DNA from: Candidatus Scalindua sp. SCAELEC01
GTDB lineage: Bacteria; Planctomycetota; Brocadiia; Brocadiales; Scalinduaceae
Reading direction: 5' to 3'
Assembly (NCBI GenBank): GCA_004282745.1
Contig: SHMT01000035.1
Location: 1 to 45,535, forward strand
DNA length: 45,535 nucleotides
The translations under genes were made by a program, and so were the position numbers. This document shows positions 13,244 through 43,855 of this stretch, piece after piece. The stretch's first letter is position 1. Every line of letters starts with the position of its first letter. The notes below the pieces were generated by a model that was not told where the DNA came from, did not search any database, and worked only from the letters and a program-made list of their open reading frames with translations.

Positions 13244-14626
13244 ATGTTACCAGACACCCCGGTATTTGAAAGGCCCTCGGTAGAGAAGGAACTTATCGAA
13301 CGGGTTTTATGGATCGTAACCATTCGCTGGATCACTGTTGCGGGAATATGTGTCACCTCTTTCATAGCCTGCGTCGCTCTCAATATTGACCTGCCTATCA
13401 CGGAAATTTTAATAATTGCCTCTTGCCTTTTATTCTTTAACGTTATCTGTATATTCTATCACCGTTACATAAAATGCATATCGTATCGACAGTATATAAA
13501 TTCACATCAACGGTTTGCTCAAATACAGATAACGGTTGACTGCATTGCACTCGTATCACTCCTACACTATACGGGTGGAATAGAGAGCCCCGTAATATTT
13601 TACTTCATATTTCACGTTATTATTGCCGCTATCCTTTTGCCGAGAAGGTCCTGTTATCTCCAAACCGCACTTACCCTGCTATTGATTATCGTCATATCAA
13701 TTCTGGAATATGTAAACATCATCCCTCATGTTCAGATTGTGGAACTATTTCCAAATACGGTTTATGATAACGCGCTTTATCTCTTGTCCACGCTTTTCTT
13801 CTGCGTCACCTCCCTCTGCGTCTCTGCATTTTTAGCGACTACTATTGTCAATCATCTCAAAGTGAGAGAGAGAGAAATAGTCGTTCTCAGGAACAATATC
13901 ACAGATGCATATAAAAAACTGGAGACAAAGGAGAGGGAAAAGAGTGAATTCACCTACAAGGTTACCCATGAACTTAGAGCGCCCTTAAGTGCAATACAAA
14001 GCCTCTTAAAATCAATCGAAGAGGGCTATGCGGGAGAAATTTCGGAAAAGGCAAAAGAGTTAATCGTACGGTCTGAGAAAAGGACCCGATTTCTCTTGAC
14101 CCTCGTGAGAGATCTGCTTGATCTGGTGACGGGTAAAATAGGAGAACCGAGGGGGAGCAATAGCCAATCGGTAGATATAAATGAGACGGTTACTGGTACA
14201 CTTCAACTCATGCAGGAACACGTAAAGGTAAAGAGTCTCAAACTTACCGTTCATGCCACGGAAAAACCTCTTTATCTGAGAATAAATCCGGATGATCTGG
14301 ATATTATCATGACAAATCTGATTGGTAATGCAATTAAGTACACCCTGCCAGGCGGTACAATAAACATCAACAACACCATTACTGAAAATCAAATAAAGGT
14401 TGTGATTTCCGATACGGGAATCGGGATACCTGAAGATGACACTAATAAGATCTTTAACGAATTTTACCGGTCAAGAAATGCAAAAGTCCTTGAACAGGAT
14501 GGTACGGGGTTAGGATTAACCATTGTGAAAGAGCTGATGAGGAAATATGGTGGGAGCATTGATGTGCAGAGTTCCGTAGGGAAGGGTACGGATGTCACAC
14601 TTTTGTTTCCCATTAATACTCAGTAG
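13244..14626 (+). CDS. RegB/PrrB-like six-helix membrane histidine kinase
   Basis: The 460-residue kinase has six hydrophobic segments (about residues 15-215) and no large external loop. Between helices is YTGGIESPVIFYFIFHV, resembling the GGxxNPF quinone-contact motif of redox-sensing RegB/PrrB. A short coiled coil leads to HisKA with VTHELRAPL (His242), then N box NLIGNAIKY, G1 DTGIGIP and G2 GTGLGLTI. I chose ATG 13244; a TTG at 13199 would add 15 poorly conserved residues. Its final Gln and TAG stop (CAGTAG) are the first six bases of an inserted 167-bp element. Without that element the frame would run on about 26 residues from ACT. It probably works with the receiver upstream and may tie hydrogenase expression to redox state; that link is inferred from position. 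Confidence 0.87.
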   Translation: MLPDTPVFERPSVEKELIERVLWIVTIRWITVAGICVTSFIACVALNIDLPITEILIIASCLLFFNVICIFYHRYIKCISYRQYINSHQRFAQIQITVDCIALVSLLHYTGGIESPVIFYFIFHVIIAAILLPRRSCYLQTALTLLLIIVISILEYVNIIPHVQIVELFPNTVYDNALYLLSTLFFCVTSLCVSAFLATTIVNHLKVREREIVVLRNNITDAYKKLETKEREKSEFTYKVTHELRAPLSAIQSLLKSIEEGYAGEISEKAKELIVRSEKRTRFLLTLVRDLLDLVTGKIGEPRGSNSQSVDINETVTGTLQLMQEHVKVKSLKLTVHATEKPLYLRINPDDLDIIMTNLIGNAIKYTLPGGTININNTITENQIKVVISDTGIGIPEDDTNKIFNEFYRSRNAKVLEQDGTGLGLTIVKELMRKYGGSIDVQSSVGKGTDVTLLFPINTQ

Positions 14627-14787
14627 CGTCCGGTTAGGTTTTTGCGTATTTAATTTGTTGCCCCAAAACTTGTCATTCCCGCATGTTTTTAGCGGGAATC
14701 TATGATGAAACGAGTCTCTGGATACCCGATAAAGGCGTTCGGGTATGACAAAAACCGCCTAAGCAAAAACCTAACCGGACAATGATG
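14621..14787 (+). mobile_element. MITE copy 1, 167 bp, with 9-bp target duplication
   Basis: The element runs from CAGTAGC to AATGATG and is flanked by ATTAATACT at 14612-14620 and 14788-14796, a perfect 9-bp target duplication. Just inside the ends are identical 18-nt inverted repeats GTCCGGTTAGGTTTTTGC (14628) and its complement (to 14780). Two perfect 8-bp hairpins lie inside: ATTCCCGC/GCGGGAAT (14675-14699) and ATACCCGA/TCGGGTAT (14722-14746). It encodes nothing and sits between convergent genes. Confidence 0.85.
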
Positions 14788-14847
14788 ATTAATACTCACA
14801 ATTACTTTTTACAATACCCTCTTTGTTTAATGTCTTATAACAAAGCG

Positions 14848-22109: not shown

Positions 22110-22525
22110 AATCACCAAACGCGTTTTTCTTTTTTTCCGGGCTGTATCGTTCGATATCGAGACCGCTACATTTAGTGGGGCCATCAATGGCGAATGCAGC
22201 AATGATAACATGACCTCCGGGTTTTACCGCCTCTTCCAACCGTCGCATGTACTGAGTCTTATCTTTTGTATCAGTAAGAAAATGAAAAACTCCTCGATCG
22301 TGCCAGAGGTCATATTGGTCTGAAGGTTCGAACTCCGTTACATCAGCCTCAATCCAACTTACGTTTTCAGCCCGACTGCCCAGCCTCTCTTGAGCATAAT
22401 GAATCGCTTTTGATGAAATATCGAGAACAGTTAAATTCTGAAATCCCTGATCTAATAATCTATCCACAAGCACGGATGCACCACCTCCAACATCAATGAT
22501 TTTCGCGGCATAGTCTATTTTTTAG
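22110..22525 (-). pseudogene. Truncated class I SAM methyltransferase relic
   Basis: Reading leftwards from 22525, the frame gives KIIDVGGGASVLVDRLLDQG (motif I, Gly-rich SAM loop), then LTVLDISSKAIHYAQERLG (acidic loop), WIEADVTEFEP, YDLWHDRGVFHFLTD and GGHVIIAAFAIDGP. This is a thiopurine/trans-aconitate-type methyltransferase core. The N-terminal 40 or so residues are missing because the sequence runs straight into MITE copy 2 at about 22522, and after SGLDIERYSPE...AFGD (about 22113) the family similarity stops. Both ends are therefore lost. The frame stays open into the His-rich protein gene, which could mislead an annotator into one 285-residue fusion. Confidence 0.65.
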
Positions 22526-22674
22526 GTTTTTGCGTATTTAATTTATTGCCCCAAAACTGTCATTCCCGCATGTTTTTAGAGGGAATCTATGATGAAACGA
22601 GTCTCTGGATACCCGATAAAGGCGTTCGGGTATGACGAAAGCCGCCTAAGCAAAAACCTAACCGGACGAACTGG
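22522..22674 (+). mobile_element. MITE copy 2, left end deleted
   Basis: The core from TTAGGTTTTTGC to CTAACCGGAC (22667) matches the other copies with one base deleted and a few substitutions. The left CAGTAGCGTCCGG part is absent; TCTATTTT joins directly to TTAGG. The right outer arm reads GAACTGG, unlike either canonical end. No 9-bp duplication is found. A deletion joining the element to the methyltransferase relic explains this best. Confidence 0.75.
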
Positions 22675-27000: not shown

Positions 27001-27122
27001 GTGTCAGGGAATGCGTCTATCGGGGTATGCATTATAGAGCGAATACCAATACCAATAAATACGGCAAATAGCATCAGGATAAACAGCCTGTTTTTCAAAG
27101 AGAATTCTATGATATTATTCAT
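24024..27122 (-). CDS. czcA: Heavy-metal efflux RND pump CzcA-like, unit 2
   Basis: The 1032-residue protein is a complete HME-RND transporter. The first helix, IDAFPDTTPVQVQVNTVA and EIEQQITLPIE are typical of CzcA. TM4 reads SMGAIDFGIIVDGSVVMTEI, the DFG-x3-DG type usually linked with divalent cations (Zn, Co, Cd), although the usual Glu-Asn after it is Glu-Ile-Asn. I chose ATG 27122 rather than GTG 27128 because GGAAGG lies about 9 bases ahead. It overlaps the end of czcB by 8 bases. No outer-membrane factor gene accompanies this pair, so it may share the TolC-like protein of unit 1 or use another. Its stop codon overlaps repeat D. Confidence 0.93.
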   Translation of the reverse strand: MNNIIEFSLKNRLFILMLFAVFIGIGIRSIMHTPIDAFPDTTPVQVQVNTVASNLNPSEIEQQITLPIELSISGFSGLINVRSLSKFGLSQVVATFDDNTNIYDARQFIIERLMSVDLPEGIDRPQLGPISTGLGEVFHYILRSSNPDRTLDELRTLHDWIIKPELRKVPGVAEVNSWGGFERQYQVIVSPESLVKYHVTLNQLFETLAQNNNNVGGGRIVSAGQSLLVHGLGRVSTIEQIENIMLKAHKGAPVYIRDVASVVIGHEIRRGAVTAGGKGEVVLGLGFALMGENSKKVTEGLQKSLDAVRKSLPEDVKVEIVYDRTDLIYKVINTVKHNLVYGAILVVLVLFLILGSFRAGLLVAIAIPVSMLFAIFGMYEFSIAASLLSMGAIDFGIIVDGSVVMTEINMRKLNEKQRHLGRPLTNMERLKGISESGKEVIRPIIFGMGIIIIVFLPILSLEDVEGKMFRPMAWTFIFAMIGALAIAILLSPILSYYFLPRKIREKEYFIERVLKRVYTTALSMILILRWKYVLFGVVFFLLIGTAFIGTRLGGEFIPKLKEGAITINTIRLAGVSIEEAVAYNSRIEKLLLELFPDEIKHIWSRIGTAEVATDPMGIELTDIFITLNPSDQWKRARTQAELIKEMEEELEDLPGVNMIFTQPIEMRLNEMVTGIRSDVGIKIYGDNFEELVRLSNRVQEILKDVKGVSDLAGEQITGQPTLQIIVNQDQIARYGIPASSVLNLVKTVGVHQVGDIFEGQRRFPLVVRLPEKQRTDVDALANTLIPTESGQFLPLHNLAEVRETEGYSTINREWGRRLIKIQCNVRDRDIASFVQDAQTRIEKKLRLPEGYVIEWGGQFEHLERSRIRFMIVVPIALLLIFLMLYFSLKNFVDVFIIYTGIPFAFIGGVFALWGRGLPFSVSAAVGFIALSGIAVLNGQILVSTIRMVRKEGLILEEAVKEAAKQRLLPVMATAITDAVGFIPMAISTSIGAEVQRPLATVVIGGVTTSTLLTLFVLPALYLSMGKYLRISN

Positions 27123-28614
27123 CCACACAACCTTCCCCCAAACGAAACTTGAGGAATTCTGATTTTAAGGTAAAGCTTCCTGCGACAACTACCTTTTCAT
27201 GAATCGATACTCCTTCAATAATCTCAAATTTCTCATCTCTTCTATTACCCAGCACAACCCTGCGAATTTCGTAAAGATCGTCCGATAGCTTAACAAACAG
27301 GAAAGACTTTTTGTCAAAACGTTGTATGGACTCAACCGGCACGTACAACACACGGTTAATTTGTTCGGATAAAAGTGAGACCTGTCCAAACAGCCCGTGT
27401 TTTAAAAGAAAATCCGGGTTTTTTACCATTGCGCGGGCCTTTAACATCCGACTTTCTTCTTCTATGTGAGACGCCAGCCAGATTAAGTCACCATGCAGTT
27501 TGGTTCCGGGAAGGCTACTAAAACTTGCTTCGACGGTATTTCCGATCTTGAAGGAAGATAGCAGGTATTCCGGGATAGAAAGTTCAAGCCACATTGTAGA
27601 TAGATCTGCCAGTGAAAAGAGGGTATCACCCAGCTCAACAGCCTCACCAATAACGGCATGTCTCTCAATAATCGTTCCTGCAAATGGGGCGAGAATGGGG
27701 AGAACAGAGGTGCTTGACTGAGTTTCAACAATCTCTTTCACTTCAGCGGCTGTAAATCCGTAATTGAGAAGTTGTTGACGTCTTGTATTCGTGGTGTTTG
27801 TGGCCACCTGATATTCTGCCAGCGCTTGTTGATAGTCACGTTGTGAAGATATTTTTTTTTCAAAAAGCCCTTTTTCCCGTGTATAGATCAGCTCTTTTAG
27901 TGTTTCATTTGCTATGGCAGTTAGATAATCGGCTTTTGCGCATGCAATTTCAGATGAGGCAATTTCGACCAGGACATCCCCTTGAGACACATATGCACCC
28001 AAATCGACAAGAACTTTTTGTATTACTCCTGATGTTAAGGGTGTTACACGGGCAAGATAATTCATGTTGTAGGAGACCTGGCAGAGAACATTATGGGTGA
28101 CAGGGGGGGCATCTTCATTCGGAGAAATAGTAATCACGCCTGCCTTTACCGCGGATTCCAGAGATGCCAGTCTTACCTTTAAGCCTTTGCCAGGTATAAG
28201 TGAAGCGGTTAATTCAGGGTGGCAGATCCCACACTCTTGTTCAGGTACCCTATGTTCTTCACAATAAAGTTCTCCTGATGGTACTTCGCTGTTATTTGGT
28301 TTTAATTCAGGGTGGCAGATAAAGCATTTATCTTCATAAACACCGTGTTCTTTACACCATAACCGATTCGGGTCTCGACTGGATTCTTCTGCTTTGGCGT
28401 CTAATTCAGGATGGCAGATAAAACACTCATCCTCATAAACATTATGTTCGTTACACCATAACCGATTTGGGTCTCGAACGGAGCTTTTCGCCTGCTTATT
28501 GTGAACTTGATGTGCGTAACCGTTCATATATGTAATCTGTACACAAAGCAATGCCAGAAAAATAATCCCTGGCAGATACAATACCCTGTTTATCAGACGT
28601 TGTTTATGTTTCAT
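27115..28614 (-). CDS. czcB: RND adaptor CzcB-like with three N-terminal Cys/His modules
   Basis: This 499-residue periplasmic adaptor starts with an uncleaved or cleavable hydrophobic segment (about residues 12-30). Three near-identical modules follow (about 48-71, 81-104 and 112-135), each of the form Leu-Trp/Tyr-Cys-x2-His-x6-Cys-x2-Cys-His-Pro-Glu-Leu, for example YEDECFICHPEL. These look like small metal-binding knuckles that could hand metal ions to the pump. The standard adaptor follows: lipoyl/barrel-sandwich (LTSGVIQKVLVDLGAYVSQG), hairpin (ANETLKELIYTREKGLFEKK) and beta-barrel (VLYVPVESIQRFDKKSFLFV). I chose ATG 28614; GTG 28626 is four codons earlier. The three-fold module is a plausible expansion by duplication. 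Confidence 0.9.
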   Translation of the reverse strand: MKHKQRLINRVLYLPGIIFLALLCVQITYMNGYAHQVHNKQAKSSVRDPNRLWCNEHNVYEDECFICHPELDAKAEESSRDPNRLWCKEHGVYEDKCFICHPELKPNNSEVPSGELYCEEHRVPEQECGICHPELTASLIPGKGLKVRLASLESAVKAGVITISPNEDAPPVTHNVLCQVSYNMNYLARVTPLTSGVIQKVLVDLGAYVSQGDVLVEIASSEIACAKADYLTAIANETLKELIYTREKGLFEKKISSQRDYQQALAEYQVATNTTNTRRQQLLNYGFTAAEVKEIVETQSSTSVLPILAPFAGTIIERHAVIGEAVELGDTLFSLADLSTMWLELSIPEYLLSSFKIGNTVEASFSSLPGTKLHGDLIWLASHIEEESRMLKARAMVKNPDFLLKHGLFGQVSLLSEQINRVLYVPVESIQRFDKKSFLFVKLSDDLYEIRRVVLGNRRDEKFEIIEGVSIHEKVVVAGSFTLKSEFLKFRLGEGCVDE

Positions 28615-28722
28615 TTTTATTAACACCTGTATGAATAAGTTTTTAACTATGTAGATTGAATAGTCTTATCGACTAATACGTAAGATACAAAATAGTTTAC
28701 AATTTTGGTAATTGCACCGTGG

Positions 28723-28963: not shown

Positions 28964-29073
28964 AATAATTGATTGCGGAGGTCTGAAGAGGGTCTTTGCA
29001 ATTAGTTCTTTGTAGAGAGCGTCTTCAGTCATTGAAAGAATTTTCAAACGAAAAAACAACTTCTGGTAATACT

Positions 29074-29240
29074 CATCATTGTCCGGTTAGGTTTTTGCGT
29101 ATTTAATTTATTGCCCCAAAACTTGTCATTCCCGCATGTTTTTAGCGGGAATCTATGATGAAACGAGTCTCTGGATACCCGATAAAGGCGTTCGGGTATG
29201 ACGAAAGCTGCCTAAGCAAAAACCTAACCGGACGCTACTG
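29074..29240 (-). mobile_element. MITE copy 3, 167 bp, outer ends reversed relative to core
   Basis: The target duplication is GGTAATACT at 29065-29073 and 29241-29249. The left outer end reads CATCATT and the right GCTACTG, which are the reverse complements of the right and left ends of copies 1 and 4, yet the core between the 18-nt inverted repeats has the same orientation as in those copies. It lies in a 1.3-kb gene-poor stretch. Confidence 0.85.
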
Positions 29241-29613
29241 GGTAATACTGAAAAGTATAATGGTAATAGTAAGAAAACTTTTAGCAAACGTATTTATTGT
29301 AATTTCACGAAGATGATAACGAAACTCAGCGATATTTCTATACTCGGTATGAAAAAAGGAATAATCCAAGGGTATATGGGTGAATTAACCATAAAAATAA
29401 ATAAATGTCAAGGGCCTTATAAGGTTAACGATGAGAAAAAATGGGTGAAATAGGTGAAATAGTACATGCGTGTAATCAACACCTTACCATTTCTCATTAA
29501 ACTCCCTTAAAATTGAGGTGATTTGAAACACTATTTGCCAGACTATTTCAAAATTAATATGAGTCACTTGCATAAAGACCGATTGTTGACGAAAGTAATG
29601 AAATCTCGCGTTA

Positions 29614-43688: not shown

Positions 43689-43855
43689 CAGTAGCGTCCG
43701 GTTAGGTTTTTGCGTATTTAATTTATTGCCCCAAAACTTGTCATTCCCGCATGTTTTTAGCGGGAATCTATGATGAAACGAGTCTCTGGATACCCGATAA
43801 AGGCGTTCGGGTATGACGAATGCCACCTAAGCAAAAACCTAACCGGACAAAGATG
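43689..43855 (+). mobile_element. MITE copy 4, 167 bp, with 9-bp target duplication
   Basis: The element runs from CAGTAGC to AAAGATG and is flanked by TTAATTTTT at 43680-43688 and 43856-43864. The same 18-nt inner inverted repeats and two hairpins as in copy 1 are present, with core and ends in the same relative orientation as copy 1. It sits inside the polysaccharide cluster, so it moved after that cluster was acquired, or came with it. Confidence 0.85.

What the first reader, a model, noticed from the sequence alone, without database searches (positions are those of the whole stretch)
29065..29249. MITE copy 3 has its core inverted relative to its outer ends
In copies 1 (14621-14787) and 4 (43689-43855) the outer end CAGTAGC lies beside the core side that reads GTATTTAATTT, and AATGATG or AAAGATG lies on the other. 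In copy 3 the outer ends are swapped (CATCATT left, GCTACTG right) but the core keeps the same direction. All three are 167 bp and flanked by 9-bp target duplications, so each is a genuine insertion. The 18-nt inner repeats GTCCGGTTAGGTTTTTGC are identical at both sides, so recombination between them could flip the core. A mobile element whose inside can invert, changing which strand carries its hairpins and any promoter, would be unusual.
Basis: partly seen in the sequence, partly recalled or inferred. Interest (0 to 1): 0.72.

Follow-up and report, generated by a model that had tools for sequence, protein, structure and literature searches.

The report
Jumping-DNA copy with its middle flipped
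One small non-coding jumping element in a genome related to ammonium-oxidising (anammox) bacteria really does carry its middle the opposite way round from most sister copies, probably through an old swap between its mirror-image arms; there is no sign of an active switch, and similar flips are known in Neisseria.

Summary
Copy 3 (29074-29240, 167 bp, 9-bp duplication GGTAATACT) has end types in the order R-L around a core that reads the same way as in copies 1 and 4 (L-R). An empty site in Scalindua rubra shows that the whole 167 bp, outer 7-mers included, is the insertion. The genome holds more than 50 paired copies. With intact target duplications I count about 25 L-R, 8-9 L-L, 4 R-L and no R-R. 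So copy 3 is one of four, in two core subfamilies. The elements are MITEs of an IS4-family insertion sequence. Related genomes carry intact transposase copies with the same arms; this genome has no detectable one. The outer 7-mer varies across the family (CAGYRNY), is unusually often identical at both ends of one element, and occurs in both polarities elsewhere. Copy 3's core matches the L-R subfamily at all 15 diagnostic sites, so one inversion between the arms, in place or in its parent, is the simplest history. Exchange between copies, visible as mosaic cores, is the main rival. No same-locus comparison was available and no promoter was predicted inside, so an active switch is unsupported. 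Correia elements and template switching are close precedents: a new member of a known kind.

The parts
29065..29073 (.). left 9-bp target duplication GGTAATACT of copy 3
   Evidence: single copy at the orthologous empty site in S. rubra
29074..29080 (+). outer end of type R (CATCATT) on the core's left side
29081..29098 (+). left inner arm GTCCGGTTAGGTTTTTGC
   Evidence: the same arm bounds the IS4-family insertion sequences L211, L212 (variant), L215
29099..29215 (+). core of subfamily A, same direction as in copies 1 and 4; A letter at all 15 A/B diagnostic sites
29216..29233 (-). right inner arm, identical to the left one
29234..29240 (-). outer end of type L (CAGTAGC read inward) on the core's right side
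29241..29249 (.). right 9-bp target duplication GGTAATACT
14621..14787 (+). copy 1, L-R order, TSD ATTAATACT (14612-14620, 14788-14796)
43689..43855 (+). copy 4, L-R order (right end CATCTTT), TSD TTAATTTTT
22522..22667 (+). copy 2, a decayed copy with its left end lost

Best explanation
Copy 3 is a non-autonomous miniature element (MITE) moved in trans by an IS4-family cut-and-paste transposase that recognises the 25-bp ends (7-bp variable outer part plus 18-bp conserved arm) and makes 9-bp target duplications. Its lineage was L-R. One exchange inside the two identical 18-bp arms turned the 117-bp core round, leaving outer 7-mers and target duplications untouched. Shown: the insertion, its boundaries, the target duplication, the arms shared with IS4 elements in relatives, the opposite phasing, and its recurrence. 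Inferred: that the event was an intra-element inversion (polymerase template switching or recombination between the arms), and whether it happened at this site or in the parent copy before it jumped. There is no evidence that it is ongoing, reversible or functional.
For: Perfect TSD and empty site. R-L copies L098 (= copy 3), L079, L062 and L080 all keep 9/9 TSDs. Copy 3's core is pure subfamily A at 15/15 diagnostic sites, and nearly all other A copies are L-R, so one inversion suffices; swapping both ends separately would need two exact replacements of four bases each, with no homology outside the element to guide them. The tree of TSD-flanked copies needs at least 6 switches between the two polarities, 3 of them in this genome (many forks weak). 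Both ends of an element share the same outer 7-mer in 11 of 40 independent core clusters against 2.2 expected (max 9 in 5000 shuffles), as expected if arms copy each other. Template switching between short inverted repeats is reported to give both arm homogenisation and spacer inversion (PMC8604942).
Against: Copies also recombine with each other: L045 is B on the left, A in the middle, B at the last site; L049 and L086 have B-type diagnostic sites around the 27-bp insert of another subfamily. L079 has a B-type base beside its right arm, so it may be a recombinant or an old form. The reported spacer inversions in PMC8604942 involve spacers of a few bases, here 117 bp. An R-like end (CAGCATT) sits on the left of a decayed B-core copy (L090), so R-L may be ancestral in that subfamily. 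Symmetric ends could also reflect selection by a shared transposase.
Confidence: 0.55

Rival explanations
1. Shuffling of arms between copies. Ectopic recombination in the arms or core conversion between different copies (for example an R-L B-core copy whose core was replaced by an A core) produced R-L and L-L hybrids, some of which then transposed and gained fresh target duplications.
For: Mosaic cores L045, L049, L086. L-L copies with perfect TSD (L045, L053, L066, L069, L073, L074) cannot come from simple inversion. Several L-L or odd-ended copies lack a TSD (L046, L051, L054, L063), as crossover products would.
Against: Copy 3 shows no B residue at 15 sites reaching to within 3 bases of both arms. 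Two exchanges are needed to turn L-R into R-L. No reciprocal flank pairs were found among the TSD-less copies beyond weak low-complexity 8/9 matches.
Confidence: 0.3
2. An invertible switch: the core flips repeatedly in the living population and alters expression of the flanking genes (efflux operon on one side, radical-SAM protein on the other).
For: Identical 18-bp inverted arms; intergenic position between divergent genes; Correia elements are reported to invert (review PMC10969869 citing Elbeyioglu et al. 2017).
Against: No promoter-like site inside the element. No mixed-orientation locus seen; the identical-flank pair L248/L268 in G001 has the same orientation. Only 4 of about 38 TSD-intact copies are R-L. 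The arms are transposase ends, and no dedicated recombinase was looked for.
Confidence: 0.06
3. Assembly artefact: the core was placed the wrong way round in a short-read assembly.
For: Contigs of relatives often break at these elements; no reads were available here.
Against: Flanks are contiguous in S. rubra, the TSD is intact, four R-L copies recur in two subfamilies, some with private mutations, and a sister genome has the same order (L242).
Confidence: 0.04

Closest known systems
Correia repeat enclosed elements (CREE) of Neisseria
   Same: 104-157 bp MITE with inverted-repeat ends of two sequence types, symmetric and asymmetric copies, a core with a direction, end symmetry differing between strains in seven copies (PMC2649163), and reported inversion (PMC10969869 citing Elbeyioglu et al. 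2017, not readable here).
   Different: Different ends and core; here the partner is IS4 family with 9-bp duplications; Correia promoters and RNase III sites were not shown here.
IS4-family insertion sequences, IS4Sa-like subgroup
   Same: Relatives L211-L213 encode YREK-type DDE transposases above the NCBIfam IS4 cut-off; 5'-CA ends; 9-bp duplication; 1.3-1.4 kb (PMC2266710).
   Different: The MITE has no gene and its core shows no evident similarity to the insertion sequence beyond the ends; subgroup placement was not tested by a tree.
Template-switch homogenisation and spacer inversion of short inverted repeats
   Same: Predicts both identical arms and turned spacers (PMC8604942).
   Different: Described there with spacers of a few bases in yeast genes; here 117 bp in a mobile element.

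Membership tests
MITE | short, non-coding, terminal inverted repeats, target duplication, many copies | tested here: met
   167-bp elements, 25-bp ends, 9-bp TSD, more than 50 paired copies
MITE | ends shared with an autonomous element | tested here: met
   intact IS4-family elements L211 and L215 with the same arm, L212 and L213 with slightly different arms, in related genomes; none found in this genome
IS4-family partner | DDE transposase with YREK signature | tested here: met
   NF033592 IS4 family, 206.8 and 193.8 bits for L211 and L212 against cut-off 115; YKLRWNIEIFFGWWK fits Y-2-R-3-E-6-K
IS4-family partner | target duplication of about 8-13 bp and 5'-CA ends | tested here: met
   L212 and L213 with at least 8/9 duplication; CAG or CAA ends; criteria from PMC2266710
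Invertible phase-variation element | both orientations at one locus in a population | not testable with these tools
   no reads and no second strain; no orthologous filled site found
Invertible phase-variation element | promoter inside the invertible segment | tested here: not met
   no promoter-like site between 29074 and 29240; only sigma-70-type consensus was scanned
Correia element | Correia end and core sequences | tested here: not met
   ends are CAGYRNY-GTCCGGTTAGG and cores lack CCGGTACGG/TCAGGACAA given in PMC2649163

The most novel reading that the evidence does not exclude
A cross-phylum MITE family in which the core is still turning round between its arms in living populations, in step with copying of one outer end onto the other, so that each insertion is a two-state device.
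Probability: 0.07. Interest if true: 0.65.

Novelty: new member of a known kind. Interest (0 to 1): 0.36.

Why it matters
It shows that the ends and core of a bacterial MITE need not evolve as a unit. The phase between them records exchanges inside the arms, so MITE families with two end types could be used to measure such events. The family is also found in several phyla (Brocadiales, Desulfobacterota, Nitrospirota, Latescibacterota and others) and I found no description of it in the searched literature. As a regulatory switch it is unsupported.

Tried and rejected
Independent point mutation of both ends: rejected, since exact L and R 7-mers are swapped (8 substitutions needed). Outer ends as flanking sequence: rejected by the empty site. 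Internal promoter or Rfam RNA: none inside the element. Same-locus test with relatives: flanks of own copies and of relatives compared, no orthologous filled pair; the G036/G038 searches were also negative. Reciprocal products of ectopic crossover: only weak flank matches. One phylum search failed on a wrong handle. Direct gene conversion of just the outer 7 bases was considered unlikely because there is no homology beyond the element's edge. A placeholder script was run.

Full report
Observation. Each consists of an outer 7-mer, an 18-nt arm GTCCGGTTAGGTTTTTGC, a 117-bp core, the arm inverted, and another outer 7-mer. I call CAGTAGC type L and CATCATT type R, both read inward. Copies 1 and 4 are L-core-R, copy 3 is R-core-L. 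The core is strongly directional (218 against 56). The orthologous place in Scalindua rubra is an empty site with a single 9-bp target, and G006 is also empty there, so the outer 7-mers are part of the insertion.

Genome-wide census. The arm with up to 3 mismatches occurs 134 times in the 4.59-Mb genome. I paired 52 copies. Among those with at least 8 of 9 duplicated bases, about 25 are L-R, 8 are L-L (9 with L068, whose duplication is offset by a one-base deletion), 4 are R-L (L098 = copy 3, L079, L062, L080) and none R-R. Copies fall into core subfamilies A (153 bp between and including the arms), B (152 bp) and a 180-bp form with a 27-bp insert. A and the 180-bp form are mostly L-R; B is L-L or R-L and never L-R. 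A tree of 88 duplication-flanked copies from this and related genomes needs at least 6 switches between the two polarities; R-L copies sit in three separate places within this genome's part of it. Many forks are weak, so this is a rough minimum. Both polarities with perfect duplications also occur in the sister species G001 (L249/L250 against L241/L243) and in S. rubra (L251 against L257).

What the element is. The same ends bound complete insertion sequences of about 1.3-1.4 kb in related genomes (L211, L215, L212 with the variant arm GTCCGGTTAGGGATTTGC, L213 with mismatches), two of them with matching target duplications. Their proteins are IS4-family transposases (NF033592, far above cut-off) with the YREK signature. 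The criteria of PMC2266710 (YREK, about 10-bp duplications, CA ends, 1150-1750 bp for IS4Sa) are met. In this genome neither the transposase nor any DDE_Tnp_1 domain was found, so the copies are probably stranded, unless the gene lies in the missing 1-2 percent or another transposase serves them. The host lies near Scalindua: G004 shares contig lengths with S. rubra BSI-1 and G001 with Scalindua sp. RBC_AMX3; this identification is an inference. The arm is found across several phyla.

Behaviour of the outer 7-mers. Across 40 independent core clusters the outer 7-mer varies as CAG-Y-R-N-Y, while the two ends of one element are identical in 11 clusters against 2.2 expected from shuffling. Selection by a shared transposase could contribute, but several 7-mers coexist within one genome, and complete insertion sequences also have unequal ends (L211, L213). 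Copying of one arm onto the other is a natural cause. PMC8604942 describes both arm homogenisation and spacer inversion as outcomes of template switching between short inverted repeats.

How copy 3 arose. At 15 sites that separate subfamilies A and B, copy 3 has the A letter at all, up to 3 bases from each arm. It is therefore an A element, from a mainly L-R lineage, with the ends the other way round. One inversion between the arms does this in a single step and leaves the duplication intact. The rival is exchange between copies, which certainly happens: L045 is a B-A-B mosaic, L049 and L086 carry another subfamily's insert in a B context, and L079 has a B-type base beside its right arm. A core replacement in an R-L B element would also give copy 3, but would have to run from arm to arm without leaving a trace. 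I give inversion 0.55 and exchange 0.30. Whether the inversion happened at this site or in the parent copy cannot be told.

No evidence for a switch. There is no promoter-like site or Rfam match inside copy 3. No locus with both orientations was seen; the searches for shared filled sites in relatives failed, and a duplicated locus in G001 has the same orientation twice (L248/L268). R-L copies are a small minority. The absence of R-R may mean that R, which lacks the usual G at position 3, works only opposite an L end; with copies related by descent this cannot be tested statistically here.

Comparison with what is known. Correia elements of Neisseria are the closest parallel: similar size, two end types, symmetric and asymmetric copies, seven copies differing between two strains in end symmetry (PMC2649163), and reported inversion (review PMC10969869). 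This is a new family showing a known kind of behaviour.

Noticed in passing
window 22522-22667: A fourth, decayed copy: right arm intact, left arm cut to TTTTTAGGTTTTTGC and no target duplication found.
   Followed up: partly
L059, L081, L091 and L085 (own genome): Several copies sit in the same kind of target, TGGTTTTC-GGTTTTTCT ... GAAAACCA, an inverted repeat, suggesting preference for a hairpin or repeat.
   Followed up: no
L248 and L268 (G001:C21): Two copies 8 kb apart share flanks at 97.5-100 percent identity, a local duplication that includes the element.
   Followed up: partly
L330 (G000:C99 about 82186-82306): A shorter relative, 107 bp between and including the arms, with a perfect 9-bp duplication GGAATTACT and a different core.
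   Followed up: no
window 28209-28482: Tandem repeats with about 93-99 nt spacing inside the reading frame 27115-28626 (HlyD/CusB-like membrane-fusion protein).
   Followed up: no
L291: One viral contig (IMGVR_UViG_3300014656_000268) carries the 18-nt arm, a possible vehicle between phyla.
   Followed up: no
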